Below, one piece after another: positions 36,872-60,749 of a stretch of 64,000 nucleotides of DNA (position 1 is the stretch's first letter; each line of letters starts with the position of its first letter). This DNA comes from Antedon bifida. Lineage: Eukaryota; Echinodermata; Crinoidea; Comatulida; Antedonidae. The notes under the pieces are model-generated. The model did no database searches, was not told the DNA's origin, and worked only from the letters and a program-made list of their open reading frames with translations. The translations under genes and the position numbers were made by a program. The stretch is taken from positions 11,667,501-11,731,500 of the forward strand of contig OY727093.1 of the NCBI GenBank assembly GCA_963402885.1, given 5' to 3'.

Positions 36872-36907
36872 CAACGCTAGCTACAGTTAACCGGAGTTTC
36901 GACTAAA
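36872..36907 (+). promoter_or_regulatory. 5' UTR exon end of peptide gene R1
   Basis: GCTAGCTACAGTTAACCGGA followed by GTTTCGACTAAA ends at a GTAAGT donor at 36,908. The same text precedes gene R2 (donor at 42,174) and, more diverged, gene R4 (donor at 58,115). Conservation of a donor plus upstream bases points to a shared non-coding first exon. Confidence 0.55.
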
Positions 36908-37134
36908 GTAAGTGGAATTTTACTTTAAACTAATAGTTAAATAATAATTTAACAGTTTGAATATTGCCGTACATTAACATTGAGAAATTGTAAAACAATT
37001 GTTTAAAAATAATTTTAGATAATTGGAGAAAACATTTTCTATTATTATTATTATTATTATTATTAGGCCTATTATTATTGTTGTTGTTGCTGTTGTTGTT
37101 GATTATTATTTTGTTTTATTTTATTCAAGAAACA

Positions 37135-40100
37135 ATGCTTGGATTGACAATAATCGTAATGTGCATATTATGCTATCAGCCTATAAACGCTAGACCACCA
37201 GGTTGGTAGTTTTCTTTTCTATTTATAAAGAACTTTCCGTTATTGAACCTGTATTTGTTAGTGTTAATTAATATTAATGTGTGAGATATATTATCATAAT
37301 GGTATATCAATATTACAATTATCATAGCCAATTAATACAATATATCTTAATCAATTAGAATTGAGGAATATAACTTTCTGTATATTTCGATGTTTTATGT
37401 TTCTTTTATATCCATGTAGGCTGAAACGTTTTACTGTGTAAAGAAGGTCCAGTATGCTCTACTGAATCAATTGTTGTTATATTTTAGGCCTACATTTAAA
37501 CTGTTTGATATGATCTAAAATTAATATCAAACTTAGTGGCAGTTGCAGGAAATTGGAGGAGGGGCATAAAAATATGGAATAATGTGCTGAAAATTAAATA
37601 TTTATATATTTATTTTAATATTGAATTGCGTAAAAACCCCACCTTACTTGCCCACTCTATTTTTAATATATTTTCAATGCTGGCTACTATTTGAAATTTT
37701 TGTTTAAGATATTCCCAAATCAAACACATTAAAACAATATTTTATCTATGAATTATACAAAATCTACATTATCAAACTAGTGTGATGTGCCAAATCATGG
37801 TAGTGATATGCACGAATAGTGATATGCATAAATATTGTAGCGATATGACATCATCATGTCCATATATGGGCACATCACATTTGTTGTCACATAAAGTTTG
37901 ATAGTGTTGACAGAGCTTTACTTTAATCTGTTTATAGCCAAATCAGACGATACATTTTGTAGTTTATGTCCACCAGGCTATAAATGCGATGCGGAGAAGA
38001 AAGAATGTAGTAAGTGTTAATACATGTTTTTAAAATGTGTACACAATGTCAAAACACCGGAATTTAATCATCGTAAATGTACGGAAGCGTATAGTGACCA
38101 CGACATGTTTAAATCCTTTAGAAGATATGGCAATTATAGTCTACCACATCATTTAGGAGACCGCTATCAATGAAATATGTCTTATTCTTATTATTATTAT
38201 TGTTTATTAATATTATTATTATATAACAATATAAATATAGCTTTCAGTGTAATATTAGTTAAATTACTAAAACAAAGTAGTAGTATATATACTAATCAAT
38301 ATAGTGAATTAGTTGAATATCTAAAACAAATAAATTGTAGTTCACGCCTTATTTCTAGAATGTTTACTCGATGGTATAAAAAGTTGGTTCGTACCTTCGG
38401 TACTGATTTTAACCACCTGATGTAACCCTGTTTACAAATTAAATTGAGTTCGATAATTAGTTATTGACAAATAAAATTAATTTAGGTTCAACGATTTGCT
38501 CCAAATAGGGGTGTTTTCCTTTACGTAAGGGCAAAATTCGGTAAATCGCGCCTTATTTCTAGAATGTTTACTCGATGGTATAAAAAGTTGGTTCGTACCT
38601 TCGGTACTGATTTTAACCACCTGATGTAACCCTGTTTACAAATTAAATTGAGTTCGATCATTAGTTATTGACAAATAAAATTAATTTAGGTTCAACGATT
38701 TGCTCCAAATAGGGGTGTTTTCCGATCGTGGTATACACTGTCTAATGGATGTCCATTTTGAAAAATACCCGCACACAATAATACGAGGTTCAGGTTTTGT
38801 TATGCATGTTACAACCGCTAATGTAGAAAACGCCAGCTAATGTCGAAACAACCGTTAATGTAGAACAATCCACCGCTTATGTAGTAAAACCTCCAGCTTA
38901 TGTAGAAACACCAACAGCTAATGTAGTAAATAAAAATCAACACCAGCTAATGTAGAAACAGTCAACAGCTTATGTAGTAACGAAAATTGCCTTCCAGCTT
39001 ATGTAGTTACTATCGCCAGCTAATGTAGAAAATGCTAATTCATGTGCAAACATCGATCTTTACTTAGCTATCTTTCACCTCTCGTAAGCAACCGACTTTC
39101 TAAAACGACCACACATCGTAATAAGCTACCATCTCTGTTAAGGGACCGCTTCTAATAATCGACCACCTCTCTTAAGGGATCACCTCCTCTCATAAGGGAC
39201 CGCTTCTCATAATCGACAACCTCTCGTAAGCGACCACCTCTTAACGACCATACCTCTCGTAAATTACCACCTCTTTAAAGGGACCACGACCTCTTTTTCT
39301 CTATTAAAGGACCGCTTCTCATAATCGACTATCTCCCGTCACAACGACCTCTGGTAAGTAACCACCTCTATTGAACGTCCACCGTTTCTATTAAGGAACC
39401 ACTTCTTATAATCGACCACCTCTCTCGTAAGGGATCACCTCCTCTCATAAGGAACCGCTTTTCATAATCGACCACCTCTCGTAAGCGACCACCTCTCTTA
39501 ACGACCACACCTCTAGTAAGTGACCACCTCTTTTAAGGGACCACGACCTCTTTCTCTCTATTAAAGACACAACGACCTCTGGTAAGTGACCACCTCTATT
39601 GAACGACCACCGTCTCTTTTAATGGACCATTTATCACAATCAACCACCTCTCGGAAGTGGTCAATGATGAGAAGTGGTCCCTTAACAGATACAGTGGTCG
39701 TTCAATAGAGGTGGTCACTTTCGAAAGGTCATTGTGATGGGAGATGTCGATTATGAGAAGCAGTCCCTTAATAGAGGTGGTGGTCCTTTAAAAGAGGTGG
39801 TCACTTACGAGAGGTGGGGTCATTAAGAGAGGTGGTCCTTTAAAAGAGTCGTCACTGACGATTATGAGAAGCGGTCCTTTAATAGAGAGAAAGAGGTCGT
39901 GGTTCCTTAAAAGAGGTGGTCACTTACGAGAGGTGTGGTCCTTAAGAGAGGTGGTCGCTTACGAGAGGTGGTCGATTATGAGAAGTGGTCCCTTAACAGA
40001 GATGATTTTTTACGATGTGTGGTCGTTTTAGAAAGTTGGTTGCTCACGAGAGGTGGAAAGACTGATAGCTAAGTAAAGATCGATGCATTTGCACATGAAT

Positions 40101-40475
40101 TAGACATTTTTGTAAAATATATAACATTTTCTACATTAGCTGGCGATGGTAACTACATAAACTGGGAGGCAATTTTCGTTACTACATAAGCTGTTGACTG
40201 TTTCTACATTAGCTGGTGTTGATTTTTATTTACTACATAAGCTGTTGGTGTTTCTACAAAAGATGGAGGTTTTACTACATAAGCGGTGGGTTGTTCTACT
40301 AACGGTTGTTTTGAAATTAGCTGGCGTATTCTACATTAGCGGTTGTAACAATGCAATTTGATTTCAGACTTAATGTCCACTTATAATAATACACTTTAAT
40401 TATTATATTTTCTCAGCTCTGCGTGGGTTTACCACCGTCTTTGGCAGCTTTCAAGACGCGGCAAGAGTAGGTTGA
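37135..40475 (+). CDS. small secreted cysteine peptide with C-terminal Gly, gene R1
   Basis: Exons 37135-37201, 37938-38009, 40417-40475, all phase 1; 65 residues. Exon 1 (MLGLTIIVMCILCYQ) is a signal peptide in a new exon starting at 37,130. Exon 2 has four cysteines spaced C-x2-C-x5-C-x7-C (FCSLCPPGYKCDAEKKEC). Exon 3 encodes FTTVFGSFQDAARVG-stop; a final Gly is the donor for C-terminal amidation, giving a predicted ..AARV-amide. The terminal exon matches those of R2-R4 in the F..S..DxxR core. Intron 2 is 2.4 kb and houses a direct repeat and a 1.5-kb foldback element. AATAAA at 40,566. The family is not one I recognise; the CxxCPPGYxC run recalls EGF/TNFR-type modules, but only four cysteines are present. 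Confidence 0.7.
38345..38723 (+). repeat. 204-bp direct duplication in intron 2 of R1
   Basis: 38,345-38,519 and 38,549-38,723 are almost identical (one clear change, GATAATTAG to GATCATTAG). Each contains CTCGATGGTATAAAAAGTTG and GGTACTGATTTTAACCACCT. Confidence 0.9.
38807..40350. mobile_element. 1.54-kb foldback (TU-like) element
   Basis: Two arms of roughly 750 bp are inverted copies of each other around about 39,580-39,660. The ends are TGTTACAACCGC and GCGGTTGTAACA, flanked by a 5-bp target duplication ATGCA (38,802-38,806 and 40,351-40,355). The outer arm is a tandem of AGCTAATGTAGAA / AGCTTATGTAGTA units; the inner arm is a tandem of CTCTCGTAAGCGACCACCT units. No coding capacity. Foldback elements with arms of short tandem repeats are known from sea urchins (TU) and Drosophila (FB); the comparison is from memory. 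It lies wholly within intron 2 of R1, so that pre-mRNA would contain a very long hairpin. Confidence 0.85.
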
Positions 40476-40969: not shown

Positions 40970-41625
40970 TAAAACCTCGAAAAAAAGCCCATCTCGAAAA
41001 GAAGCCTATGTCGAAAAGAAGCCAACTCTCTTTGGTTGACAAAAGTAATCTCGAAAAGAAGCCCATGTCGAAAAGGAGCCAACTCTTGTTGGTTGACAAA
41101 GTAATCTCGAAAAGAAGCTTATATCAAAAAGAAGCCCATATCGAAAAGAAGCCAACTCTCTTTGGTTGATAAAAGTAATCTCGAAAAGAAGCCCATGTCG
41201 AAAAGGAGCCAACTCTCTTTGGTTGGCAAAAGTAATCTCGAAATGAAGACCTTATCGAAAAGAAGCCAACTCTCTTTCGTTGACAAAAGTAATCTTTAAA
41301 AAGAATCCCATAACGAAAAGAAGCCAACTCTCTTTGGTTGGCAAAAGTAATCTCTAAAAGAAGCCCATGGCGAAAAGAAGCCAACTCCCTTTGGTTGACA
41401 AAAGTAATCTTTAAAAAGAATCCCATCTCGAAAAGAAGCCAACTCTCTTTCGTTGGCAAAAGTAATCTCCAAAGAAGCCCATCTCGAAAAGAAGCCAACT
41501 CTCTTTGGTTGGCAAAAATAATCTCTAAAAGAAGGCCATCTTGAAAAGAAGCCCACTCTCTTTGGTTGGCAAAAATAATCTCTAAAAGAAGCCCATCTCT
41601 AAAATAAAGCCATTTCTGAAGCAAG
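40970..41625. repeat. about 58-bp minisatellite downstream of R1
   Basis: About eleven imperfect units built from TCTCGAAAAGAAGCC and AACTCTCTTTGGTTGACAAA-AGTAA, with a shorter internal periodicity from CGAAAAGAAGCC. Long minus-strand frames through it arise from the repeat and are not credible genes. Confidence 0.85.
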
Positions 41626-41699: not shown

Positions 41700-42173
41700 G
41701 CGGTAAATGTTTGAACGATCAATATGTTAAACGATTGACATTCATTTTTTTTTTATTGCTAATTAACCTTAACCAACGACTACGCTAAATTTAGTTTTAC
41801 TTACTTATTTGCATACATTTACAAACATGTTATTTTAATTGTGCTAATTTATTAAAAATATATGCTATATGATATTTTATGATGATGTCAAATAATGAAT
41901 ACAACCTGAATATATTTTTTAATTGACATTGTATTGATAAACGATTTATAATAATTTAGGTTTTGCTGACCTAACTGAAAATAATCAATAATAAATGTAC
42001 TTTGTTAGTTTATTTGATTATTTGCATAAATTTACCAACATTATTTTTGTATTATACTACGGGATACGGAAATTTATTTGTATATGATGTAATTAAAGAA
42101 TCAGTTTTAATAGTCATCCAGCTCTGTACAACAGCAAGCGGCTAGCTACAGTAAATCCGAGTTTCGACTAACA
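41700..42173 (+). promoter_or_regulatory. promoter unit and 5' UTR exon of peptide gene R2
   Basis: Contains ATATGCTATATGATATTTTA, GCCAAA/TCAAATAATGAATA-type text and GGCTAGCTACAGTAAATCCG followed by AGTTTCGACTAACA ending at a GTAAGT donor (42,174). Diverged copies lie at 36,300-36,907, 43,850-44,290, 47,660-47,808 and 61,290-62,580. It is the conserved upstream unit of the peptide family. Confidence 0.5.
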
Positions 42174-42512: not shown

Positions 42513-43189
42513 ATGCTTCGATTGACAATGATCGTAGTGTTCATTTTATGCTATTCGTCTATAAACTCTGAGATGTCAGGTTAGTATGTAACACTGTTAC
42601 AATTATTTATTGTCATTTTAACAACGAGGTATAAATGAAATGTGGTTGGTTGGTTTACATTTTGAGTTACATACAATTATACAATGAATAAAAAAAACGT
42701 GAAATCAATGAATCTAAAGAGATCTTACGAACTTGTTATTACATACGACTTAGTGGGCTTAACTCTCAATTAGTATGTACGACATTAATCAACCATCTTT
42801 ACTTGTGTGATCTGCTTTATTATAATACTTAAAGGAGACCTGCGCAGGGGTGCAGAATGTAAACCATCAGCCATGTGTATTAATGGACAACCTATTATTG
42901 GTAAGTAAGTTATGAATTGAGTTGCGTGATTCGAACGCAAATTTCGTCGTTAAGTTAATTTTCATACACATGATAGATATTTTGTTTTTGTCGAGCAAAT
43001 ATTTAGTTCATGCAGGGAAGAGTGAAATTAGTAAATTACACTGAAATTCCACTCTTCTGTGGTTCATGTGTGCAGGCCTATTATTCTCTCAATGATACAC
43101 TAATATTCTATTATCTTCTTATTGCAGGAACGACGTACAGAGTCTCTATGTTTTCCAACAAAGCAGATGTTAATAGAGCATTGGGATAA
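42513..43189 (+). CDS. small secreted peptide with C-terminal Gly, gene R2
   Basis: Exons 42513-42579, 42835-42900, 43128-43189; phase 1 junctions; 64 residues. Signal exon MLRLTMIVVFILCYSS; a short upstream ATG at 42,503 is out of frame. Exon 2 keeps only two cysteines (ECKPSAMC) and has a dibasic RR near its start, a possible processing site. Exon 3 encodes TTYRVSMFSNKADVNRALG-stop, again ending in Gly. The 3' UTR (AGAATAAAATAACATA at 43,276) is shared with gene R4 at 60,682. Compared with R1 and R4 the cysteine module is half lost, so disulphide pairing must differ. Function unknown. Confidence 0.7.
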
Positions 43190-44431: not shown

Positions 44432-45265
44432 TCAATGCAACAAAGCATTCCATTGTATGTGCATTCTTGACACATTAAGAACGTGGCGATTAATGGCCAT
44501 GATCAAGGAATTACTACTTGTGTTCACACGATTTTTAAAACTAAAAACAGATTTTCTAATGAACTCATCAAAGGATGGGACGTCATTTAAGACAAACATC
44601 ATGCTTGCACTAAAATGTCTAGGCTGCTTCAGCAGCAAACGTAAGGCATTGTTATAACATACTTTCAGTGATCTCAGAGTGCTCTTATTATATCTACACC
44701 ATAAGGTTGAACAGTACATGCTGACACAGTAACTCTTAAATAGATAACATTTAGTCTTAGTAGAACATTTTCCAAACTTTCTATTTAGAGAGTTGGCCCT
44801 AATGCAAATAGATCGATATTGACGTTTGATGTCACTTTCATCACTCAGATTATTACTGATCATATGAGCAAGATAGGTTATTGAATTATCAACGATTAGA
44901 GGTGCCCCATTTAAGGTAATATGTGGAACACCTTTGAGGTTGCGGACTTTCGGGCAAAATAGCAAGCATTTGGTTTTGTTTTCATTAAAAGTAATATCAT
45001 GGTCACTAGCAAAACCTTCACAGAGTCCAATTAGGCTTTGTAAGCCAGTCACTGACGGAGCCAAAAGGACCAATTCATCGGCAAAGCTTAGGCAATTCAG
45101 TTTAAGACTGTTAATTTCACAACCTTCTTTTGACTTAGTCAGTTCAACAGTTAACGGATCAGTGTACACATACATAGTAAAGTAGAGGGGACATAACGCC
45201 TCCCTGGCGAACCCCATTACGAACAGTGAAAGAATCGGAAACGGAACTACCCCACCTGACAACAA
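44432..45265 (-). pseudogene. LINE reverse transcriptase, C-terminal half
   Basis: Reads DPLTVELTKSKEGCEI, then CLSFADELVLLAPSVTGLQS, where FADE stands in the place of the catalytic [FY]ADD, so the polymerase is inactive. NGVRQGGV is readable in another frame just upstream (near 45,210). The C-terminus RLLLKQPRHFSAS and FKNRV is typical of CR1/L2-related elements. Finger and first palm motifs are deleted. Confidence 0.8.
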
Positions 45266-45324
45266 ATTCCTGATTCCTATACTATGACCTCAGTATCTTA
45301 ACTATAGGTGAAGGGGTACCCCTG

Positions 45325-46270
45325 TCAACTAAGTAAGGATTCAGTTATCTCATTCAAATTGTTTATATCCTCCCTCTTAACATTATTCCAGTTAACTTTG
45401 ATAAATTTTGAGGATTCATGCGTATTTTCACCCTTGTCATTACAATCATCACAAATATCAATGCCTAAATAGTCAAACGAAATAGGAAAGTGATCAGAAC
45501 ACATAAAATCATAATTAACTATAAAATTACACAACAGAGAATGGGAACTATGAGTGCTCACAACATGGTCTAACCAACTTGTGGTACTGTGAGCATCACT
45601 AAAATAAGTAAACGTATCTGAGTAATGACCAAAGTATTCCAAATCAGATATAACCAAGTTATACTCAGTGCAAAAATCGAATTTTTTCTTTGGATCAGAA
45701 TTAAAATCACCAACAAGGACTACTTTGTCATTGTCAAACTCTTCAACAATACTTTCGATTTTACCTAAATATCGTACATATTCACCAAAGTTGTCGTCGC
45801 ATTCATAGGGTAAGTACAGGTTAACAAATAAGGTTTTATCCCTACCCTTGCCAACCTCAATAGCGACAAGCCTATTATCTAAGATCAACAAGTTTAACAA
45901 CATCGTGTAATGTTTTCCTAAATAGTGTCGCTACACCCCCATATGGCCCTCCCACAAGTAATGAGGCAGAATCCATAAGGGAAACACTAAAACAATCAAA
46001 ATCGGGGTGAAAATTTTTAAGCATGGGTAGCTCATCATTTGTCAACCAAATCTCTTGTAAACATACAATGTCATGAACATCACAGAGATCATAAATTTCT
46101 TTTTGAGCAGATTTAAAAGAATTACAGTTAAGGGAGACCACCCTAAGTTTGTTAATTTTATGTGAGTCATTCATTACCCTGCTTATATTTAGGTTCATAA
46201 AACCTCCTAATGAAAGCATACTTTGGCCAGATATTAGTATCATTAACAATATCTTTGTCATTAAATTCAC
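45325..46270 (-). pseudogene. LINE apurinic-type endonuclease, frameshifted
   Basis: Two frames overlapping near 45,890 give the exonuclease-endonuclease-phosphatase fold in order: VVSLNCNSFKS, VCLQEIWLTND (catalytic Glu), VVLVGDFNSDP (Asp/Asn), SWLDHVVS and CSDHFPISFDYL (the final SDH). All catalytic residues are visible; a frameshift separates GGPYGGVATLFRK from the next block. It would nick target DNA for retrotransposition. Confidence 0.82.
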
Positions 46271-48944: not shown

Positions 48945-49035
48945 AACAAGGCCATATAGATGGCTGCAGTCGCGTGCTCAAGTTAGTGTTTACCGACCGA
49001 CCAACCAACCGACCGACGTAGTGAGCTGTAGAGTC
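48945..49035 (+). repeat. GGCCATAT / (CCGA)n dispersed element, second copy
   Basis: AACAAGGCCATATAGATGGC, GCAGTCGCGTGCTCAAGTTA and GTTTACCGACCGACCAACC match the copy at 8,130-8,215. It ends near GAGCTGTAGAGTCGCGACG. Confidence 0.8.
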
Positions 49036-49039
49036 GCGA

Positions 49040-49845
49040 CGCGACTAAAAGTACAACACAATTAATATTGTAATAAGAATAACTGGATTAAACCTCCTTC
49101 ATCCGGGTGCAAGTACAATCATGATATTGAAAAGGTATCGGAGACAACTATAATAGACCAATTCATTGTCATCATTCTGTATATAACACTGTTGTATAAT
49201 ATTTTTGAATGTCACCGACAAATTATACATAATTTATACACGTCTGTTCCCAGTGTACATAACAAAACAATATTTCTGGAGATTTATTATCAATACCACT
49301 AGAAACTTAGGTTTTTTATTTTTAAGTACTAATGCATTGACATTAAAGCATCAGAAGTGTATTTTAAAATCATGTAGATCATGATAAAATCATACTACAA
49401 CACACTACAGTACACAAGGGTGTTTTCAGGAAAGCTGGACATATTGTACAATAGTAATGAAACTATGTATTGGCATATATATGCAAAAGACAGTGTTGAT
49501 TGTTGACAAATTGTAGTTACAAACAAACAGATGACAAATTGTGTAATCGTGTCTCATATAGTGTCTCAGGATAATGATGTGTCATTGTTTTATATCATTA
49601 TACTGGCACCTGGAGAGGATTCGTTAAATGGAGCCTGTGACAGTGTCACTTTTATTCTAAAAGACAGAAACATTTTATTTTTTTTCTCTTTCGTGGGGGC
49701 AACCCACTTTTATTTCATTCTTCATATTACACATTGTAGTTATATATAGAAATTGTATAAAATGTCATTAAAATAAAGTTTTAAATATATATATATATGA
49801 ATAAAAAATTAAAATAATAATGAAACAATTAAAAATTAATACATG
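49040..49845. other. interior of inverted-repeat element, nothing recognised
   Basis: AT-rich, with an (AT)n run near 49,786. Short frames lack support. The 3' end of the adjacent Tx1-like LINE must fall near 49,790-49,860. Confidence 0.35.
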
Positions 49846-49849
49846 TAAT

Positions 49850-52800
49850 TTTAAGAAATACAAGTTAATAATTTTCTTTTTACGTTACCCCATTTCTTTT
49901 TTGCCTTGTTTATGTTACAAGCATATTGATTCTGTATAAGATTTTTTAGCTCAAATCGGAACAAGTTCCAGACGACTTTTGATCTCATTTTTGAATGCTT
50001 TTCTAATGATTTAATAAAATTTGTTTTATAAATACAAAAAGTAAACAATGATTATAATTCATTGACATTTTCACTTTTTGTTCCAATAACAATGTCTAGC
50101 CAATCATGTACGGTTTCTTCAAGTGTATAGCATTTTATAATCATGTTGTTAAATTTTGTCCATACTTTTTGGATACTTTAACATTTCAGAAGCATGTGCT
50201 TGTCTGTCTCAATTTCGTTTTGGCAGTGTTCGCACATTTCTTCAGGAGATATTTTCCATATCTTCATTCGTTGTTTACATGCCAGAATCCGATGTAGCAG
50301 TTTAAAATTAAATTGTGCTACTTTTGTTACATGTTTCATGCTATAGACTTTTTTTAACCATATTTTATTCCACTTAAAGTTCACATTTCTAAATTCCGTT
50401 TCCCATTTCGATTGACAAAATGGAGTAATAGATATATTGTTTATAATGTGTTTATAATAAAAAGAATTTTTATACTGTTTACAATATATTGTTTGTATTT
50501 CTTGTTTGTCTCTCTCTCTTTCATTGTTTATAAATATTTTCTTCCAATTTGAGGGAATTGCATTTACAATCCTAAAATATTCAATTATTCCATTTTGTTG
50601 CTCTGAAAGGGTAGGTATCAATTCTGTCGGAGTCATTAATCTGTGATTAACTATTATATCTTTTATTGTTTTATACCCTGCTTGTATCCAACTTTTAAAA
50701 TATAATGTTTTTCCACTGCATTTTATAAAAGTGTTTTCCCACAAATGTTGTTTTTCAACTTCGTTTACATTTTGCGGGTATGTATTACTTATATTGTTAA
50801 AATACACTAACACTTTTAACATTTCTTTATAAAATTCAGGCATACATTTCAGTTCTACATGACTTTCAAAATTGGGCTCACTAATATTGACAGTATAATT
50901 AAATGGATACATATAATGTTTTGGTAAATATTTCCATTTACCTGGGTCAGGGCTTAACAATCTCTTAACCCAACTAAGTTTTAACGAACTAACCATTGTG
51001 CTAAGATGTACCATATTTAGACCACCTTCTAGTATTGAATTTATAAGGGTTTTTCTTTTTATTTTTTCTCTTTTTTTACCCCACAAAAATCTATATAATA
51101 CCTTTTCTACTTTTGGGAATACATATTTAGGCACATTTATGACACTAGCATTATATACAAGTTTGGAAATTGCAAATGTTTTTATAATAATTATTTTTCC
51201 AAAAAAAGAGAGGTTTCTTTTTTGCCATAATTGCAATATCTGATCAAGTTTAGTGATTTTTTCATTCCAGTTCTTTTCTTCGCACACTCTTTTATTGTAG
51301 CCGACATATATCCCTAAGAATTTAACTGGATTCTTCGTCCATGTTAGATTAAAAGGTGCTGTTTCATTATTTTTGCTGGAACCAATCCACATTCCTTTAG
51401 TTTTTTCTTTATTTAATTTTAATCCAGATATATTACAAAAAACCTCTATTTCTTTCAAAAAGTGTTTTAAACTAGTCTCGTCTTGTGTAAATAAGACGGT
51501 GTCATCTGCTAATTGACAAATTTTAACAGTACTTTCATTTACATTATCTATATTACATGGTAACATAATGCCTTTACATAGAGGATTATCTCTTATGTTA
51601 TTAGCCATTATTTCAACAGCAAGTGTGAATAAAAGAGCAGACAGTGGACATCCTTGTCCTACTCCACTTTCCATCTGAAAACTTTCAGATAGCCAACCAT
51701 TATTTTCTATAATACATTCTGTTTCTGTATATAACAATGTAATCCATTTTGTAAATGACAAACTTTTGGAGGCATTTAAAAATAAAGTTTCTATCTAATG
51801 AATCGAAGGCCTTTGCAAAGTCTAGAAAAACTATTGCTCCGGGTAAGTTACATGTATTGGTCTGGAAAAGAACGTCTTCTACTAAGCGTATGTTTTCTCC
51901 TCCAAATCGTCCGTTGATATAACCTTTTTGGTCGGAATCAATAATTGGGGCAATTATTTTTTGTATTCTACTCGATAGGGCATAGGCCATAATTTTATAA
52001 TCAACATTTAACAATGTAATTGGTCTCCAGTTTGTTAGTAATTCTCTTTTTCCATTTTTAAATAATAACTTTATTATTCCCTTTTTTTGTGTTTTAGGTA
52101 GTTTACTTTTATTGTAGCTATAATTTAAGGATGCACATAACATTTCTTTTATATGATTCCAAAAAAACTTGTAAAATTCTACACTTAGTCCATCACACCC
52201 CGGACTTTTATTCAAGTGCATTTTATGAAGAGCACTTGTTAATTCATCTATAGTTAGTAAACCTTCACATTGCATACTGTCATTTAATGAAAGTGTTTTG
52301 GATTTTGATTTATCAAGATAGCTATTTATATTATTAACAGAAATATTTTTTTTGGAATATAAGTTTTTGTAAAAGTTGACCTGTTCTCTTAAAATTTCAT
52401 TAGTGTCGGTAGTATACTTTCCATTAGTTTTTAATAGGGTAGTAATTTGTTTTCTTTTTCCATTATTTTTTTCAAGGCCGAGAAAAAACTTAGTATTTTT
52501 TTCTCCCTTTTCAAACCATTCTATTCTCGAACGGATTTGGGCTCCTTGGGCCTCAGATGTGTATATTTCATCAAGTTGTTCTATTTTATTTTTTAATTGA
52601 CAGTCAGTTTCTTGGCTGTAGGTTGAATCAAGTTTTTTTGTAAGTTCGCTAACTTCTTTTATCAACTTTTCTTTAGTATAATTTTTTTTAATTTTCTTTC
52701 TTGAACAATATTTACACGAGAACTCTTTTATTTTAACTTTTAAGTATTCCCATAAACGGTCAGGTTTCAAGTTATATTCGTTTTTTTTTGTCTTTTCAAT

Positions 52801-53331
52801 TATGTGTATAACATTTAACGCATATATTTCATCATTCAAGACCTTATTGTTTAGTTTCCAGAATCCTGGACCTCTCTTTTTTTCATCATTTATTATTTTC
52901 AAAGATATCGCTTGATGATCAGAGAAGATACAAGGTCGAATATCTGTAGAAATGATGTCACCATTTTTATAAAGGGCGTTTGATATGCACCAAAAGTCTA
53001 ACCTTCTGTACGTATCCTTTCTTCTCCATGTAAATTGGGATTTATCTTTATGACTTTGTCTCCATATATCAATTAAATGTAACTTATTCATGCATTTTTT
53101 TAATGCTATTGGTGATTTGTCGTAGCTATTCACGCTGTTTTTCTGATCTACCTTTTTATCTAATATGCAATTCATGTCACCTCCTATTATTATGTATTCA
53201 TTAGTTACATCACATAATGTGTTTATCTTATTTTCAAGTTTCTTAAAAAATATTGCTCTTTCCTTGTAATTGTTTGGAGCATAAACATTTACGAGGTTAA
53301 AGTTGGTCTTATTATGAATAAACAGAAACAT
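49850..53331 (-). pseudogene. Tx1/L1-like LINE ORF2 (endonuclease-reverse transcriptase), 5'-truncated and frameshifted
   Basis: The first frame (53,331-51,700) has endonuclease motifs NVYAPNN, IIIGGDMNCILD, RLDFWCIS and FSDHQAISL, then reverse-transcriptase motifs NWRPITLLNVDYKI, DQKGYINGRFGGENIRL and IVFLDFAKAFDSLDR (palm Asp). A frameshift near 51,740 leads to the second frame (51,761-50,178): SGVGQGCPLSALLFTLAVEI, CQLADDTVLF (catalytic Asp pair intact), KFLGIYVG and a C-terminal CEHCQNEIETDKHMLLKC (C-x2-C-x7-H-x4-C). The first catalytic Glu of the endonuclease is lost with the 5' end, and no ORF1 is present. Long frames and intact motifs indicate a fairly young insertion. It is nested inside the inverted-repeat element. 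Confidence 0.88.
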
Positions 53332-53384
53332 TTTAAATAAACGCTCACCCCTCCCTTCGATTTAAACGCCCCGCCACACGCATA

Positions 53385-53800
53385 TACAAAACAAGGCCAT
53401 ATATATGGCTGCAGTCGCGTGCTCAAATTTTAGTTAGTGTTTACCGACCAACCGACCGACATAGTGAGCTGTAGAGTTGCGTTGCAAGCGACTAATAATT
53501 GTATCACAACACATTTCAATGACTACCATAATCTACAATTTACCAAGCATTTTTGTATCACTTTTTAGTCGCGTGGACGTGACTCTATAGTTTACTATGT
53601 CGGTCGGTCTGTCTGTCGGTCTGTTTGTCTGTTGGCCCGGTATCACTAGGCGTTTTATCGCTTTTCTGTACTTTTTGAACTGTTTTGATGTACAGAAAAT
53701 TTTTAAAGTACATTACTTTTTGAAAGTTAATTTTTTTCTGAGAGCACGCGACTTATGGCTGTTGGCCTTGTTGATAATAATTGTGCTGTATTTTTTTTTC
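53385..53800. repeat. GGCCATAT / (CCGA)n element, head-to-head copies
   Basis: A plus-oriented copy (about 53,391-53,490, GGCCATATATATGGCTGCAG then ACCGACCAACCGACCGACAT) is followed by a diverged inverted copy (about 53,570-53,785, CTATGTCGGTCGGTCTGTC, later GAGCACGCGACTTATGGCTG). This forms an inverted pair at the inner edge of the right arm. Confidence 0.65.
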
Positions 53801-54986
53801 TGCTGTAGGTAGTATTTATTTGATTATACATACCATATTACACCAATAAAAAACGAAAATACCCTTCTGAACAATAAATGCCCGGGTCGTTTATTAGGAT
53901 GAATTCGGTAAGTTACTTTAGCATTCTGAAAAGAATTCTGTTGGGCTCGACGTTTCTATCAAAATGTTTGATCATCCTCGGGGGTCAAAAATACTTTCTA
54001 GCATTATTATAAGCAAAAATACAATTACAAACAGTAAATGATTTGTTTTAAATCGTATAATGAAACAATTTAAAGCATAAGTTATTGCAAAACATTACTG
54101 TCCAAGGATAAGTTGTGTAGAGATATGTTATTTGTTTGAAACAATAACATTAGTAATTAATAGTATTTCTGGTCATCTTTTAACCAAATTTTCTATTAGA
54201 ATGAATGTAAATATGTATATTTCGAACAATTTGATACAAAATTTAAGTTTCTACAACAGTACTTACAAAGATATGAAGATGCCCTGTAAGAATAAGTTGT
54301 GTAGAGGTATGTTTTTTGTTTGAAACATTAGTAATTAATAGTATTTCTGATCATCTTTTCACCAAATTTTCTGTTAGAATGAATATAAATATGTATATTT
54401 CTAACAATTTGATACCAAATTTAAGTTTCTACGACCAGTACTTACAGAGATATGGAGATGCCCTGGTATGTGGGTCAAAGGTCAGAAAGGGCATTTCTGA
54501 TCATTTTTGACTAAAATGCCCCATTATATTTCTTCATATAACCCTTGACCCTGACTCTTTGACTTTTTGTAACATTTTTCAAAATGTGTAACAAATAACA
54601 AAATCTATATTTCGAACAGTTTAAGACCAAATTCAAGTGTCTACGACCAGTAGTTACGGAGATACATACATGCCCTGAGTTGTGGGTCAAATGTCAGAAA
54701 TGGCATTTCATTTTTACTAAAATGTCCCATTAGACTGAATATAAATGTATACCTTCTGATCAATTTGAGACCAAAATTACCTTGCTGTGACCAGTGGTTG
54801 TCGAGATTTAAGGACATGTTGGTGTTTGGTATTATAACCTTTCACCTTGACCTTTTGACCTTTCGCCACATTTTCAAAATGTGTAACCAATCCAAAATTG
54901 ATTGTTTGACCACCCTAAACCAATTTCTGAAGTCAAATTCTCTGGACCTCAAAGTGCATACGAAAGTTGATCTAGCTACTAGAGTA

Positions 54987-55044
54987 CTTACGGGTGCAAC
55001 TTTCAGTAATCATCAAGTTGTCTGGCAAAGCTTGCTGAGCTAAG
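54987..55044 (+). promoter_or_regulatory. 5' UTR exon end of peptide gene R3
   Basis: CAAGTTGTCTGGCAAAGCTT-GCTGAGCTAAG ends at a donor GTACGG (55,045). The identical text and donor are at 62,540-62,580, and a diverged form (AATCAAGTTGTGCAAAGC) lies before gene R4 near 58,060. The upstream promoter was split from it by the 7.2-kb insertion. Confidence 0.45.
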
Positions 55045-55323
55045 GTACGGTATTTACCTTCATTTTAGTTTAATTTTATATTCTAAATATTGTTGTTGTT
55101 GTATTAAAACATATTGAAAAACAATTGTTAAACAGCCTTTAGTCATGTTAAAAAATCAGTGATATTTATTTTGATATTTATTTCATTTTATTTCAAGCAC
55201 GACATAATAAAGTAAATACTGTAACATTGTAAAACTGAGAAAAAGTGAAACAGCCACAAAACAAGCAAAAAATCTTTTGGCGAATCATATTTGAGCATAG
55301 ATAGTGGTAAATAATAATGCATC

Positions 55324-55705
55324 GTATACGTCCATACAGCGTTGAAATACCGGTTTCCGTCAGATCACCGAAATTAAGCAATGTTGGGCCCGGTTGCATT
55401 CTGGATGGGAGACCGTCTGGAATCGCGGCGGGCGCTGTATCACCGGAGAGTGATGGTGTAATGATAGTATCGGACTAGCGTGTGATAGGCATGGGTTCGA
55501 ACCTATCTGTACCATACTAACTGTATCCTTAGGCAAGATGCTTTACTCTCATTGCCGGATGGGACGTAAAGCCGTTGGTCCCGTGTACATAATGCACGTT
55601 AAAGAACTTTTACACCATTCGCAAAGAGTAGGGATCGTCTCCCGGTGTGCTGATCTGGTAGGCGCTGCACTGCTGGGTGCCGTGGGTCCGTGGAGGGCCT
55701 TATCC
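55324..55705 (+). mobile_element. 5S rRNA/tRNA chimeric SINE, copy A
   Basis: 55,324-55,440 (117 nt) follows 5S rRNA from end to end: CCATACAGCGTTGAA, GATCACCGAAATTAAGCA, TTGGGCCCGGTT, TGGATGGGAGACCG and GGCGCTGTAT. Then 55,446-55,513 is tRNA-like, with GGTTCGAACC (B box) after TGATGGTGTAATGATAG. The body continues CCTTAGGCAAGATGCTTTAC, GGACGTAAAGCCGTTGGTCC and TAATGCACGTTAAAGAAC. Many substitutions in the 5S part rule out a functional 5S gene. Chimeric 5S-tRNA heads are known from the vertebrate AmnSINE1 (SINE3/DeuSINE group). Confidence 0.8.
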
Positions 55706-55854: not shown

Positions 55855-57015
55855 ATGTTTCGATTGACAATAACCATAATGTGTATATTATGCTATCGGC
55901 CTATAAATTCTGTGCCGTCAGGTTGATAGATGTCTTTTCAAAAAAGAATGCGTTGTTTATGTGCGCCACATCGCAGAGTCTTAATTCATTATTGTAATAT
56001 ATTAATAAATCACACCTATGATTTAAAGACGAACGATGTGACAGTGTGAAAGGTGCCAATTTGACATGAAAAGCAATACATGTTTGTATTAAGTTATTAT
56101 GATTGTATTCATAGTAAACATTAGTCTGCTCAAGGATGACAAAAATTAAAAAATGTTCTGATGAGACATTAAATGTAGGTGTTTTTGTTTTAAATTGTTG
56201 AATATAATAATATTATCTATGTACATAGTATTAAAACGGCAATGAATACTCTACTGATACTGGTAAAAGTCATCGTAAATTCCTATAATCACTCCTACGA
56301 CGACGACATATTATTTATAGAACATATAACAATATTAATTATAGATAATTACTTTAAAGTTTAACGCCTATTTTTGTTTTAATACCGTCTTGCAATCTTA
56401 TCACACTTCATGATTTTAATATAAAATTTACTGCGTTCGTTCGTTCGTACGTTCGTTCGTGCGTTCGTTCGTGCCAATCGAGTGATTTTGTTTAGAGACC
56501 TGTGTGATTGAAACGCGATATAGACATAAGACATACGACATACTTTATTATCTCCAAAAGAAGAAATTTCAGGAGCTTACAAAACAACAATAATCATATA
56601 AAAAACATATAAAAGATCAGACCCACCCCCACAAGTTACCTTTTATCATCTTCATTAAAGGAACCAATGCCCTTAGCTACAATTGAATCACGGTATCTGT
56701 TGGTGGCAAAAGCAGGAACTCGCATACGTCAACTTCTGGGGATATAATGACTGATAACTACATCATGGAGAGGATGAGGCTCGTCAGTCATTATTTGATA
56801 AAACAGATTTGTAACCCTGACTCTTCAACTGAAGGCAAACATACACAAGATATTCTGCTAACTTTCACACGCTCCCAATATTAGATAGTCGATACAGATT
56901 TTGTTGTGAAAGATCAGTTCATAATCTTAAGGCCTACATTATTGTTCTATTTCTACTTATTGTAGTGAATAGAACATTTTATGGCAGCAGAGCAGATGTT
57001 CACCGAGGAAAATGA
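55855..57015 (+). CDS. secreted peptide precursor with terminal Gly-Lys, gene R3 (cysteine exon lost)
   Basis: Exon 1, 55855-55921 (MFRLTITIMCILCYRP, signal peptide, new exon from 55,848), and terminal exon 56966-57015 (VNRTFYGSRADVHRGK-stop) join in phase 1 to 38 residues. The terminal Gly-Lys would be trimmed to an amide: ..DVHR-amide. The homologue of the cysteine exon of R4 can still be seen at about 56,023-56,085 (flanks AATAAATCACACCTATGATT and TTATTATGATTGTATTCATA match). It has an in-frame TGA and its donor GGTAAG has become ATTAAG, so it should be skipped. AATAAA at 57,070. Either a gene reduced to signal plus peptide, or a decaying copy. Confidence 0.55.
56430..56482 (+). repeat. 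(CGTT)n microsatellite
   Basis: Repeated CGTT units with single interruptions (GTACG, GTGCG) within the intron of gene R3. Confidence 0.9.
56535..56860 (-). pseudogene. LINE reverse transcriptase C-terminal remnant
   Basis: On the minus strand: PHPLHDVVISHYIPRS, a stop, then RMRVPAFATNRYRDSIVAKG. This matches the end of many LINE polyproteins (HPL...R.LRVP..RTNR..NS). It is followed by a 3' end GAAATTTCTTCTTTTGGAGA-TAATAAAG. Within the intron of gene R3. Confidence 0.6.
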
Positions 57016-57244: not shown

Positions 57245-57725
57245 ACGTAGGTATCAAAGTTTAGTGTACGCTAGCAAACTTGTGACTAGAAAAACAAACC
57301 AACAATATAAGAAAAGAGGAGTCAAAATATAGGCATAACCTCCTAATGTAGGCGGACGGAGGTAATACAACGAGAAAAGCATCATATATGGGCACTTCAT
57401 GTAACCAAGTTTTTGTCTGAATATTTTATATTTTCTAAAACCTATTCTATTGTAGAAAACTTTACCAAACCTTCGTTTGCAAAACTCCCGGTTTACCACC
57501 ACTGTTTGTAGAAGTTATTAAAACTAGACTCCCTGTTACCATGTCACATGACTGTGATTTGGGTTGGCATTCACAAACCTCCGCAAACCAGTTCTACAAA
57601 CTGTTTTTATGCAGTTTCCAAAAGTTCATCAACTGATCTACACTAGCAAACTTGAGGAAACTCTTTCTGTGTGTTTGTTTATTTGATTGTGGGTTTGTTT
57701 GTGAACAGCTTAGAGGAAATGATTT
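57245..57725 (+). repeat. dispersed repeat, copy 1
   Basis: Matches 63,485-64,000: shared ACTAGCAAACTTGTGACTAG-type start, CTAATGTAGGCGGA, AAAACCTATTCTAT, ACTTTACCAAACCTTCGTTT, CATGTCACATGACTGTGATT and TTCACAAACCTCCGCAAACC. The start and end both carry ACACTAGCAAAC-like sequence, suggesting a mobile element; no coding region. Confidence 0.75.
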
Positions 57726-58114
57726 TTATTATAAAAATTATTTAAAAACATCAGGGACAGAACCCGGGATCTCAGCTGTGAGAGGTTGTATAAATAACCA
57801 TTACACCTGACTTACATTAAAAAGGATGTAGTGCAATTAGTCTTATCACACTCAGTACTAAAGCATACTGTAGGCGGAGGTATGCACTCTTGGAGTGCAC
57901 TCTAGTTCTATATGAAATGATAAGCTTTACGATGTTATTTTTATCTGCTTATATTTACATAAATAATAATAAATAAATAAAATTTATCATTATTATTTTC
58001 TATTGCGCTATAATTTATTTAAATATATAAATATCAGCCTGAGCCTAAACATTTATTAATCAAGTTGTGCAAAGCAAGCTTGCAAGTTACGGATCTACCT
58101 GGGTTTCAATAACA
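57726..58114 (+). promoter_or_regulatory. upstream region and 5' UTR exon of peptide gene R4
   Basis: AT-rich, ending in ACGGATCTACCTGGGTTTCA-ATAACA before a GTAAGT donor at 58,115, the diverged counterpart of the first-exon ends of R1 and R2. The promoter is not otherwise recognisable. Confidence 0.4.
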
Positions 58115-58366: not shown

Positions 58367-60589
58367 ATGCTTCGATTTACAATAATATTAATGTTAATAT
58401 CGTGCTGTCGACCTAATGAGACACATAATGAAGGTTAGAAATGTATAATTGGCAGAATTAGACCACTTAAATCAAAAACTATCTTTTATTCCAAACAAAA
58501 TACACAACTTTTTATAATTCGGTATTTTAAATATTTGTATTTTTTATCGTATTTTTCTTTTTTTTTAATGTCTTCTTAAGTATTTTAAATTATTTTATAT
58601 CCTGTATCTTGTTAAAGAAGACAATTTTCCAAAATCGTCTATTCTTTACGAATAAAGTGTATCTATGTCTAGTCGTTCTTTGGATAGTAGATGCCGTCAC
58701 GATAGAAACTGTATTAAGTTATGATTTATAATTTGAGAAGATAATCATCTTACAGGCGTTGTTAAGCGTAATGGAATGCGACATTTATATAGCGCAATTT
58801 CATGAAGATCAGAGCGCTGTGGACAGATGTTACACCATTTCAACAACATTCTTCTCCCCTAAGGGTCACATCGGTGGTGTCATCGGCAGCCAACTACGGC
58901 GCCATTACGTCTGTCCACGACAGTGTGTGTGAACTAGTACACCGGGGTATCCTCCTACTCGTCTCGAAAGATGTACTAGGTTCTTTAAAGTGCACATGAG
59001 CAATATACATACACTGGACCTACGGTTTATAGTCTAGAAGACTTGTTCTACCACCTGAACCATGGAGCGTAGTGAGCCTCGGACCCTTGCAGATGTTATA
59101 GCAATGGATTACGGTTCCACTGTCTTAACCGCTCGGCCACTCATTACAATTAAACGATTACAATTAAAATAATGCAATACTAACGTCATCAAAACTCTGG
59201 AGTTTACAAACAGTCGTCAACTCAGGCGTTGTTTATGTGCGATGCATCGCAGAAGAACCGGTATTTTAGTCTTAATTAATTATTGTGATATTTTAATAAA
59301 TCACACATATGGTTTGTTTTCTTAAAGTGAAGCCATGTGGTGGTAGTTGGTGTATGCCTACACATTGCGAAGTTGACCTGGAACGCAAAACACATTATTG
59401 TGGTAAGTTATTATATTTGTATTCATAGCAAGCATTAGTCTGCTCAATGATGACTTGCGCCTTAAAGCTTAGGTACAGTAACACAAATAAAATCCCAAAA
59501 ATTATGAAACATGGGGGAAACTATAGATCGATAATTATTGGAATGTATATGATCAATAGACATTTTTTGCCCGCACCTGGCCTTTAAAGTAAAAATAATT
59601 TGAGTTACACATTAATATTATGTATGATATTAATTATATTTAATGATACATTTTGTAGGTAAACGTCAGTTGAACATTGCATATAAAGCTAAATTGTGGT
59701 TTAACTAACAGCTTGGCCACTCACTCATTACAATTGAACGCTTACAATTAAAATAATGCATACTAACGTCATCAAAACTCTAGAGTTTACAAACACTCGT
59801 CAACTCAGGCGTTGTTTATGTGCGATGCATCGCAGAAGAACCGGTATTTTAGTCTTAATTAATTATTGTGATATTTTAATAAATCACACATATGGTTTGT
59901 TTTTCTTAAAGTGGAGCCATGTGGTGATAGTTGGTGTAGGCCTACACATTGCATATTTTACCAGCAAGACAATACACATTATTGTGGTAAGTTATTATAT
60001 TAATTGTATTCATAGCAAACATTAGTCTGCTCAAGGATGACTTGCGTCTTAAAATAAAAATAATTTGAGTTACACATTAATATTATGTATGATATTAATT
60101 ATATTTTCGTCAACTCAGGCGTTGTTTATGTGCGATGCATCGCAGAAGAACCGGTATTTTAGTCTTAATTAATTATTTTGATATTTTAATAAATCACACA
60201 TATGGTTTGTTTTCTTAAAGTGGAGCCATGTGGTGATAGTTGGTGTAAGTCTACAAATTGCAAATTTGACCAGGAAATCAATATTCATTTTTGTGGTAAG
60301 TTTATTATATTTGTATTTATAGCAAACATTAGTCTGCTCAAGGATTTGCGTCTTAAAGTAAAAATAATTTGAGTTACACATTAATATTATGTATGATATT
60401 AATTGTATTCAATGATACATTCTGTAGAAAACGTCAGTTGAATATTGCATACAATGTTAAATTGTGGTTAAACTATCATTTTCTTAAATTATATTTCTCA
60501 CACTTTTGTTACACACTTTTTTTACAGTTAATGATGACGATTTCACTGTTTTTGGCAGCCATGGAGATGTTGCAAGATCATTTGGTTAA
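58367..60589 (+). CDS. secreted peptide with three tandem four-cysteine modules and C-terminal Gly, gene R4
   Basis: Exons 58367-58433, 59328-59402, 59912-59986, 60221-60295, 60528-60589; every junction is phase 1; 117 residues. Signal exon MLRFTIILMLISCC. The three middle exons are 75 bases each and encode the same module, C-x4-C-x4-C-x10-C: CGGSWCMPTHC, CGDSWCRPTHC and CGDSWCKSTNC, each ending H[YF]C. The terminal exon reads DDDFTVFGSHGDVARSFG-stop, with a Gly for amidation (..ARSF-amide). Because each middle exon is symmetrical, any could be skipped in frame. Introns around them are repeated as well, showing recent exon duplication. AATAAA at 60,683 in a 3' UTR shared with R2. No known family recognised; not a defensin spacing I know. 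Confidence 0.75.
58770..59142 (-). mobile_element. tRNA-derived SINE in intron 1 of R4
   Basis: On the minus strand the head, from 59,142, reads GAGTGGCCGAGCGGTTAAGA, a near-perfect tRNA-Leu/Ser A box; the B box GGTCCGAGGCTC lies about 50 bases on. The body includes CACTGTCGTGGACAGACGTA and the element ends ATTGCGCTATATAAATGTCG. A fragment of the same body is at 6,715-6,765. Confidence 0.75.
59157..60440 (+). repeat. tandem duplications carrying cysteine exons of R4
   Basis: Blocks starting near 59,157, 59,740 and 60,107 share GTCAACTCAGGCGTTGTTTA, GCGATGCATCGCAGAAGAAC, AAATCACACATATGGTTTGT, then the 75-base exon and CATAGCAA(G/A)CATTAGTCTGC. The first two units are about 585 bp apart, the second and third about 309 bp because part of the intron is missing. 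GATGCATCGC is a small palindrome in each. Confidence 0.9.
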
Positions 60590-60749
60590 ATAAATTGCCT
60601 TCGATAAAATGGTTGATGCTCTGAAATGCATAAAGATAATTTGTACGTTTTGTGTGCTTAAAGGCCCAATTCTCGGTGGTAGAATAAAATAACATAATTA
60701 TGCTTGTTTTGTTTGTATTTCTTCTTCTTCTAAGCATCATATTTCTATA

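What the first reader, a model, noticed from the sequence alone, without database searches (positions are those of the whole stretch)
36872..60690. Undescribed-looking family of tiny secreted, cysteine-containing, C-terminally amidatable peptides
Four plus-strand genes share 5' UTR exon ends, near-identical signal-peptide exons (ILCY[QSR]xIN pattern in three), phase-1 junctions throughout, and terminal exons of 50-62 bases. Seen directly: exons, phases and splice sites. Established: signal peptide plus terminal Gly is the hallmark of precursors processed by peptidylglycine amidating enzyme. Inference: a lineage-specific secreted peptide system (antimicrobial, neuropeptide or venom-like) undergoing birth-and-death evolution.
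Basis: partly seen in the sequence, partly recalled or inferred. Interest (0 to 1): 0.88.

Follow-up and report, generated by a model that had tools for sequence, protein, structure and literature searches.

The report
Feather-star hypervariable secreted peptide cluster
A genome that is likely a feather star's carries a cluster of small genes, predicted to make secreted peptides, in which the two ends of the protein are kept while the cysteine-rich middle has, in two comparisons, changed faster than the neighbouring non-coding DNA, so they likely serve in defence against other organisms rather than as ordinary hormones.

Summary
The genes are real as models. g1, g2 and g4 are intact; g3 keeps signal and tail exons but has a broken cysteine exon. 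All use phase-1 GT-AG junctions, a 67-nt signal exon, a terminal exon of 50-62 nt, and AATAAA within 100 nt of the stop. The tail keeps D-[VA]-x-R and ends in Gly (Gly-Lys in g3).

They belong to a larger locus. A fifth gene (g6) lies 2 kb past the window. A minus-strand arm to the left holds 14 similar signal exons, 7 tails and varied four-cysteine exons; six left genes read in frame.

In g4's three modules 14 of 14 variable codons change the amino acid, and exons vary at 17/75 sites against 8/214 in introns (p=4e-6). Very young copies show no such excess.

A neighbouring gene is 95% identical to Antedon mediterranea CMPK2, so this is likely a feather star. No Pfam match reached its cut-off, and g1-g4 found no relative among 5.8 billion proteins. 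The general kind is in print (crinoid PCNP, starfish KARTESH/CHUPA); identity with a PCNP could not be tested. Secretion, amidation (9 of 12 tails) and defence are inferred; there are no transcript or peptide data.

The parts
36876..36907 (+). g1 5' UTR exon, 3' part, donor gtaagt at 36908
   Evidence: 38-nt match (89.5%, running into the donor) to the g2 UTR end; alignment
37135..37201 (+). g1 signal-peptide exon (67 nt), MLGLTIIVMCILCYQPINARPP, phase-1 donor
37938..38009 (+). g1 four-cysteine exon (72 nt), loops 2-5-6
40417..40475 (+). g1 tail exon LRGFTTVFGSFQDAARVG*, AATAAA at 40566
42141..42173 (+). g2 5' UTR exon, 3' part
42513..42579 (+). g2 signal-peptide exon (67 nt), MLRLTMIVVFILCYSSINSEMS
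42835..42900 (+). g2 core exon (66 nt), two cysteines C-x5-C, with an RR site before them
43128..43189 (+). g2 tail exon TTYRVSMFSNKADVNRALG*, AATAAA at 43277
55855..55921 (+). g3 signal-peptide exon (67 nt), MFRLTITIMCILCYRPINSVPS
56029..56087 (+). relic of the g3 cysteine exon (aligned to g4 modules; stop in frame, donor lost)
   Evidence: alignment; frame and limits read by eye
56966..57015 (+). g3 tail exon NRTFYGSRADVHRGK*, AATAAA at 57070
58053..58114 (+). g4 5' UTR exon, 3' part; copies at 64375-64438 and in g6 (65856-65920), both outside the window, 96-97% alike
58367..58433 (+). g4 signal-peptide exon (67 nt), MLRFTIILMLISCCRPNETHNE
59328..59402 (+). g4 cysteine module 1 (75 nt)
59912..59986 (+). 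g4 cysteine module 2 (75 nt)
60221..60295 (+). g4 cysteine module 3 (75 nt)
60528..60589 (+). g4 tail exon NDDDFTVFGSHGDVARSFG*, AATAAA at 60683
62529..64000 (+). partial copy of the g3 surroundings (62529-63210 = 54993-55662 at 94%; 63802-64000 = 57498-57693 at 94%) without any coding exon of the family
8536..8587 (-). gene B signal exon MFQALLFVILIVSVIPE; kinship with g1-g4 not shown
7793..7885 (-). gene B four-cysteine exon, loops 4-5-9
3069..3129 (-). gene A signal exon MFRALLFTILIMSVIMPVTE, paralogue of B
2309..2404 (-). gene A four-cysteine exon, loops 4-5-8

Best explanation
g1-g4 belong to a two-armed multigene cluster in what is likely a feather-star genome, whose gene models join a kept signal exon, changing cysteine exons and a kept tail exon, and whose products are predicted to be secreted and likely work as defence or deterrent peptides that would bind foreign targets through a changing loop.

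Shown by sequence: the exon architecture, the shared signal and tail, the losses and duplications, and cysteine exons that diverge more than introns in two comparisons.

Predicted: the signal peptide is removed in the secretory pathway. The four cysteines pair I-III and II-IV, so that the last two brace a beta-hairpin. In most members the terminal Gly is turned into an amide by peptidylglycine amidating enzyme.

Inferred: the hairpin loop contacts a variable outside target such as a microbe, parasite, predator or fouler, which is why it diversifies. The kept tail with its Asp and Arg is a common handle, for a shared receptor, membrane or carrier. New modules and genes arise by tandem copying, and some die.
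For: Architecture: g1, g2, g4, g6 and six left-arm genes La, Ld, Le, Lh, Li, Ll read in frame with phase-1 junctions.

Kept ends, changing middle: La against Ld differ at 7/64 signal, 1/44 tail, 41/81 core and 408/888 intron sites.

Accelerated core: g4 modules vary at 17/75 exon sites against 8/214 flanking intron sites, p=4e-6, with 14 of 14 variable codons non-synonymous, 8 of them consecutive between CysIII and CysIV, and all cysteines kept. Pairwise p = 7e-4, 6e-5 and 0.006. Ld against Ll: core 25/84, intron 149/891, signal 2/64 (p=0.0045 and 0.0021).

Hairpin: AlphaFold2 models of a g4 module (mean pLDDT 70.5) and of the g1 module (78.0; 87-88 over residues 11-30) place CysIII and CysIV each on one of two strands.

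Amidation signal: 9 of 12 tails end G or GK.

One family across arms: the tail at -74311 beats all 5000 shuffles against g3 and g6, and the left and g3 signals agree (9 and 12 of 5000 shuffles).

Precedent: in conotoxin genes introns are conserved within a superfamily and the mature exon has more point mutations and indels than the other exons (PMC3862624, abstract).
Against: No transcript, peptide or activity data exist here. The three g4 comparisons are not independent (three copies), and intron conversion or intron function could exaggerate the contrast; a first version that ran into non-homologous sequence gave p=0.075, 0.029 and 1.4e-4. Very young copies (La/Lh, La/Le, Ld/Li) show no core excess, and in La/Le the signal differs more than the introns (2/64 against 3/1073, p=0.028); La/Ld core against intron is p=0.49 because the introns are unrelated. 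Ld/Ll gives only pN 0.31 against pS 0.25. Signal exons of g1-g4 show pN near pS, so they are kept only relative to flanks. Three of 12 tails lack Gly. Seven of 14 left signal exons have no tail exon found. Kinship is weak for several pairs: full-length g1/g4 and g2/g4 reach only z=3.8 and 2.8, and the g1 and g4 tails against La are reached by 146 and 280 of 5000 shuffles. g4 is predicted to be acidic, net charge -6, unlike most antimicrobial peptides. No fold match was significant.
Confidence: 0.5

Rival explanations
1. They are crinoid neuropeptide or peptide-hormone precursors: the amidated tail is the receptor-binding part and the cysteine part a scaffold, some of them being the PCNP precursors already listed for Antedon mediterranea.
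For: Amidatable C-terminus in 9 of 12 tails; kept tail; g2 has an RR site followed by a two-cysteine amidatable peptide; Aleotti et al. 2022 list PCNP3a/3b (two cysteines, amidated), PCNP6 and PCNP7 (four), PCNP18 (eight), PCNP19 (two).
Against: Cores change faster than introns, unlike hormones (general knowledge); g1, g4, g6 and the six left genes have no basic cleavage site framing a short peptide (read); near-identical copies stand next to very different cores.
Confidence: 0.25
2. They are small multi-headed protease inhibitors: each cysteine hairpin presents a changing reactive loop, as in other multi-domain inhibitors.
For: Tandem modules within g4 and g6; in g4 changes are concentrated in one loop with cysteines kept; weak WAP hit for g6 (E 0.56) and TILa for B (E 0.045).
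Against: All those hits are below the curated cut-offs; loop lengths vary widely; the kept, often amidatable tail has no role in this reading.
Confidence: 0.12
3. A largely decaying array: only a few copies are expressed, and the fast exon change reflects lost constraint rather than selection.
For: g3 core broken, partial copies without coding exons, 7 of 14 left signal exons without a recognised tail.
Against: In g4 exons change faster than the introns, not equally fast, and all cysteines and frames of the three modules are kept; ten genes read in frame end to end.
Confidence: 0.1
4. They are divergent calcitonin-type peptides (N-terminal disulphide ring, amidated C-terminus).
For: g2 has a C-x5-C ring and an amidatable end; echinoderm calcitonins end FGxxGP-NH2 and g1/g4 tails hold FGS.
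Against: No C-terminal Pro; no similarity beyond shuffles to two sea-cucumber calcitonins (at best 106 of 500 shuffles reach the score); no calcitonin model among the Pfam hits; g1 and g4 lack the ring.
Confidence: 0.03

Closest known systems
Predicted crinoid neuropeptide precursors PCNP3a/3b, PCNP6, PCNP7, PCNP18, PCNP19 (Aleotti et al. 2022, PMC9793003; abstract, sections 7, 24, 36, 45 and passages seen)
   Same: Same animal group; signal peptide, two to eight cysteines, C-terminal Gly for amidation.
   Different: Described as precursors with peptides bounded by basic cleavage sites; no gene cluster, shared tail or fast core evolution in what I read. Sequences sit in figures and supplements that I could not read, so identity with g1-g4 is open.
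KARTESH (KASH1/2) and CHUPA of the starfish Asterias rubens (PMC11891777; abstract, first fifth of the text, first part of the results, and discussion read)
   Same: Secreted four-cysteine peptides reported only from echinoderms; amidation signal in KASH2; I-III/II-IV disulphides and a hairpin (DDH fold).
   Different: They carry an acidic region and a convertase site before the cysteines, absent in g1, g4, g6 and the six left genes (g2 has a short SEMSGDLRR stretch); KASH2 was not listed in any of my PDB sequence searches.
Conotoxin gene superfamilies (PMC3862624, abstract read)
   Same: Few-exon genes with conserved introns and a mature exon that changes most.
   Different: No sequence kinship found; here the C-terminal tail exon is kept too, and I know of no venom gland in feather stars (recalled).
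Late nodulin family (PF07127; legume nodule-specific cysteine-rich peptides, name recalled)
   Same: Kept signal peptide followed by a short four-cysteine part (recalled); Ll scores E 3.2e-5.
   Different: Below the family cut-off (24.6 against 30.4 bits); a plant family, so most likely convergence driven by the hydrophobic signal and spacing.
CREMP modules (cysteine-rich eggshell membrane protein, PDB 9pgb)
   Same: Tandem modules with matching CysII-CysIV spacing; best PDB hit of g6 (E 0.073).
   Different: Not significant; tail and processing of that protein not compared.

Membership tests
PCNP precursors of crinoids | Sequence orthology to a listed PCNP | not testable with these tools
   Sequences are in figures and supplements; 0 supplement look-ups allowed. 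Descriptions read.
PCNP precursors of crinoids | Peptide bounded by basic cleavage sites after a signal peptide | tested here: inconclusive
   Only g2 shows an RR site before its cysteines; g1, g4, g6 and the six left genes do not (read).
KARTESH/CHUPA | Acidic region with a convertase site before the four-cysteine part | tested here: not met
   No such stretch in g1, g4, g6 or the six left genes; g2 has a short SEMSGDLRR but only two cysteines (read).
KARTESH/CHUPA | Sequence similarity to KASH2 (PDB 8V2M, 8V2U) | tested here: inconclusive
   Not listed in any of seven PDB searches at E up to 10; presence of the entry in the copy not verified.
Disulphide-directed beta-hairpin (DDH) | C-X(5-19)-C-X2-[G/P]-X2-C-X(6-19)-C (consensus recalled, not from a call) | tested here: not met
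   Met by 2 of 14 modules listed (both in g6, outside the window); g1 meets only the middle loop.
Disulphide-directed beta-hairpin (DDH) | Disulphides I-III and II-IV with CysIII and CysIV on a hairpin | tested here: inconclusive
   Strands carrying CysIII and CysIV predicted at modest confidence; disulphides not determined; no significant fold match.
Calcitonin type | C-terminal amidated Pro (FGxxGP-NH2 in echinoderms) | tested here: not met
   The residue before the terminal Gly is V (g1), L (g2), R (g3) or F (g4); feature from passages of PMC12638048 and section 24 of PMC9793003.
Granulin | Pfam PF00396 at its cut-off | tested here: not met
   g1 14.3 bits against 20.9, last half only.
EGF-like | Pfam PF00008 at its cut-off (six cysteines, recalled) | tested here: not met
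   Ld 13.6 bits against 21.5, first part of the model only; four cysteines.
Late nodulin | Pfam PF07127 at its cut-off | tested here: not met
   Ll 24.6 bits against 30.4, E 3.2e-5.
Amidated secreted peptides (mechanism, not homology) | Signal peptide and C-terminal Gly with optional basic residues | tested here: met
   g1, g2, g4 G*, g3 GK*, five left genes G*; 9 of 12 tails. Signal judged by hydrophobicity only.

The most novel reading that the evidence does not exclude
A feather-star repertoire built on a fixed frame: one kept signal exon and one kept, usually amidatable tail exon enclose exchangeable, fast-changing cysteine-hairpin cassettes (none to three per gene), spread over about 179 kb in two facing arms. 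It would be an echinoderm system of the conotoxin or plant NCR type, with the kept tail acting as a common docking tag and the cassette as the target-reading part.
Probability: 0.35. Interest if true: 0.8.

Novelty: new variant of a known kind. Interest (0 to 1): 0.62.

Why it matters
Crinoids are the sister group of the other living echinoderms, and little is known of their secreted peptides (PMC9793003, abstract). A clustered family that keeps both ends and diversifies its middle would give a testable case of repertoire evolution outside venomous animals, and would suggest that some orphan 'neuropeptides' of crinoids are fast-evolving defence peptides. The exon-against-intron contrast can be checked at once with population or sister-species genomes.

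Tried and rejected
Protein search of 5.8 billion sequences with g4 and with an alignment of g1-g3: no candidate. A control with the neighbouring CMPK2 gene found Antedon mediterranea at 95%, so echinoderm proteins are in that set, but unannotated short genes would be missed.

Granulin, EGF, WAP, Dickkopf_N, TILa and late-nodulin hits were all below cut-off. Calcitonin was rejected. A classic cationic antimicrobial peptide was not favoured: predicted net charges are +2 (g1), +3 (g2) and -6 (g4).

Genes A and B (minus strand, 2-9 kb) are paralogues of each other (z=17.5), but their kinship to g1-g4 was not shown: of six pairs, B/g1 has z=3.8 and the others are below 3. That full-length test is blunt, since g1/g4 also gives 3.8 and g2/g4 2.8. 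A tentative last exon of B (7661-7627) was seen and not adopted.

Fold searches: 8 and 1 matches with E up to 10, none significant; the VIA second look had one chain and no match. The models were of exon translations that include a few intron-coded residues (g4 module with three sequences, g1 module alone).

Rows dropped: the loose tail pattern also matched peptides unlike the family tail, which I left out (minus strand at -42354, -46420, -60189, -64255, -75964, -75973, -76735 and -92133; plus strand at 100469, 147484, 161123, 177683 and 177704), as well as longer readings of the same tails from earlier acceptors. Cysteine exons at 122099-122203 and 149891-149962 (plus) have no signal exon near them and were not counted.

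The mafft tail count for Ld/Ll (24/44) I take as a misalignment; ungapped, the La and Ll tails differ at 4/44.

Genome-wide counting failed: the genome search answered once, where 601 nt around g1 matched itself, g2 (two places) and g3, plus three short matches on C16 and C7 that I did not follow. Two papers that name KARTESH (PMC13409769, PMC9410279; passages) mean the place, not the peptide. PMC4942781 (passages) gave no usable DDH consensus.

Full report
WHAT IS THERE. In the window, g1 (37135-40475), g2 (42513-43189) and g4 (58367-60589) are complete models on the plus strand with three, three and five coding exons. Their predicted proteins are 65, 64 and 117 aa. g3 (55855-57015) has intact signal and tail exons around a broken cysteine exon. 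Every coding junction is GT-AG in phase 1. The signal exons are all 67 nt. The stop of each gene is followed by AATAAA at 55-94 nt (18% of 100-nt plus-strand stretches of this window hold one). Sequence after the stop is shared between g1/g2, g2/g3 and g2/g4 (0 of 300 shuffles reach the score); for g1/g3, g3/g4 and g1/g4 it is 1, 11 and 28 of 300.

CHANCE. Six phase-1 exons with four spaced cysteines occur in the 64 kb on both strands, against 0.025 expected: four belong to g1 and g4, and two are minus-strand exons of genes A and B. The tail pattern has 0 hits in 60 simulated windows; it was written from the four tails, so this bounds chance but is not a blind test.

ORGANISM. The neighbouring gene at 20818-23448 is 95% identical over 489 aa to an NCBI protein named 'UMP-CMP kinase 2, mitochondrial-like [Antedon mediterranea]'; the Anneissia japonica protein is 72% over 70% of the query. 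Each of the two tandem copies is closest to a different Antedon protein. The window is therefore most likely from a feather star, Antedon or a near relative; since identity is 95% and not 100%, probably not the same assembly (inference). It lies at G000:C1:11667501-11731500 of a 315.6-Mb genome in 27 contigs.

THE CLUSTER IS LARGER. I fetched 120 kb to the right and 140 kb to the left; coordinates below are window coordinates, negative to the left. Right: g6, signal 66056-66122 (again 67 nt), cysteine exons 66286-66360 and 66501-66578, tail 67385-67436 ending NIVDGFYISQADIIRA*, which has no terminal Gly. On the plus strand no further signal exon of this pattern was seen up to 184 kb. Left, minus strand: 14 signal exons of the type MFRLSIILFMFLYVTVELSSA between -45609 and -111869, and 7 tail exons: five SFNRNIHDVNRANG*, one SLNRNIHDVNRAKE*, one KFYANRADAYRVKQ*. 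Six left genes (La, Ld, Le, Lh, Li, Ll) read in frame through signal, four-cysteine core and tail. For seven of the 14 signal exons no tail was recognised, and the tail at -74311 lies 7.5 kb from its signal exon. The left arm holds blocks 84-99% identical to each other, the longest 8.8 kb at 98.6%, so copying is recent or the assembly repeats itself.

ARE THE ARMS ONE FAMILY? The architecture is the same. The tail at -74311 beats all 5000 shuffles against g3 and g6, and is reached by 2, 15 and 84 of 5000 against g2, g4 and g1. The La and Ld signals against g3 are reached by 9 and 12 of 5000. Other pairs are weaker: La tail against g1 and g4, 146 and 280 of 5000; left signals against g1, g2 and g4, 65 to 299; against g6, 1114 and 1594, which is nothing. 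I take them as one superfamily with moderate confidence. Within the window, full-length protein scores give z=8.5 for g1/g2 but only 3.8 for g1/g4 and 2.8 for g2/g4; g4 is tied to the rest by its signal exon (41-42 of 67 nt), UTR, tail and shared 3' sequence.

HOW IT EVOLVES. The clearest result is in g4. Its three cysteine modules sit in duplicated blocks whose introns are almost identical. With homologous tracts only (an insertion beside module 1 left out), exon and intron differences are 12/75 and 8/221, 14/75 and 8/231, 11/75 and 9/219. Counting sites that vary among the three: 17/75 in the exon, 1/101 in the upstream intron, 7/113 in the downstream intron (p=4e-6). All 14 variable codons change the amino acid; eight in a row lie between CysIII and CysIV; every cysteine is kept. 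An earlier count that ran into a non-homologous end gave p=0.075, 0.029 and 1.4e-4. A second pair, Ld/Ll, shows signal 2/64, core 25/84, intron 149/891, with pN 0.31 and pS 0.25; Li/Ll repeats it but Li is a near copy of Ld. Against: young pairs show no core excess (La/Lh 1/99 and 15/1053; La/Le 0/99 and 3/1073; Ld/Li 2/84 and 21/906), and in La/Le the signal exon differs more than the introns (p=0.028). Signal exons of g1-g4 have pN near pS. La against Ld, with unrelated introns, keep signal (7/64) and tail (1/44) while the core differs at 41/81.

FOLD AND PROCESSING. AlphaFold2 gives two short strands carrying CysIII and CysIV, at mean pLDDT 70.5 for a g4 module and 78.0 for g1. Nothing in the PDB matches significantly by fold or sequence. 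The disulphide pairing I-III/II-IV is a prediction by analogy with KASH2 (PMC11891777). Nine of 12 tails end in Gly or Gly-Lys, the substrate of the amidating enzyme (established knowledge); g6, Ll and the tail at -74311 do not. Signal peptides were judged by hydrophobicity only.

READING. Kept ends with a core that outruns its introns resembles what conotoxin genes show (PMC3862624, abstract), and is not expected for hormones. I therefore favour secreted defence or deterrent peptides over neuropeptides, at about 0.5. The target is unknown. The general class is in print for crinoids (PCNP) and starfish (KARTESH/CHUPA). Whether any of g1-g4 is a PCNP could not be tested. In the listings of ten literature searches I saw no clustered, fast-evolving family of this kind in crinoids, but several listings were capped and the library lacks most subscription journals.

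Noticed in passing
16136 to about 19750, and 20818-23448, plus strand: Tandem pair of CMPK2 (UMP-CMP kinase 2) genes; each is closest to a different Antedon mediterranea protein, so the duplication is probably older than that split.
   Followed up: partly
2309-3129 and 7793-8587, minus strand: Two paralogous small genes (A, B) with a signal exon and a four-cysteine exon; a third such signal and cysteine exon lies at -6377 to -6807. Last exons not found; kinship to g1-g4 not shown.
   Followed up: partly
47809-54986: About 7.2-kb inverted-repeat element (92% arms at 47809-48270 and 54986-54529) that encloses a reverse transcriptase in two overlapping minus-strand frames; it lies between g2 and g3.
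   Followed up: partly
44432-47402, minus strand: Second reverse-transcriptase-like stretch in several frames; the RVT_1 hit of its 44432-45289 frame is below cut-off (19.9 against 29.6 bits).
   Followed up: no
38803-40355: Long inverted repeat (fold-back) inside the second intron of g1, arms 85% alike.
   Followed up: no
40991-41612: Tandem array with a unit of about 57 nt just downstream of g1.
   Followed up: no
55324-55443 and 62859-62978, plus strand: Two full-length 5S rRNA-like sequences (57.6 and 64 bits) inside a repeated block, perhaps a 5S-derived SINE.
   Followed up: no
Left arm, window coordinates about -39 to -100 kb: Large blocks up to 8.8 kb and 98.6% identical: either very recent copying or assembly duplication; read depth should be checked.
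   Followed up: no
13066-14244, plus strand: Open frame of 392 codons, stop to stop, not searched.
   Followed up: no
L008:2578-3385 (g6 last intron): A repeat of some 55 nt (ataaaatgtgaaaagtgactttcttattagggtg and flanks) fills most of the intron, by eye.
   Followed up: no
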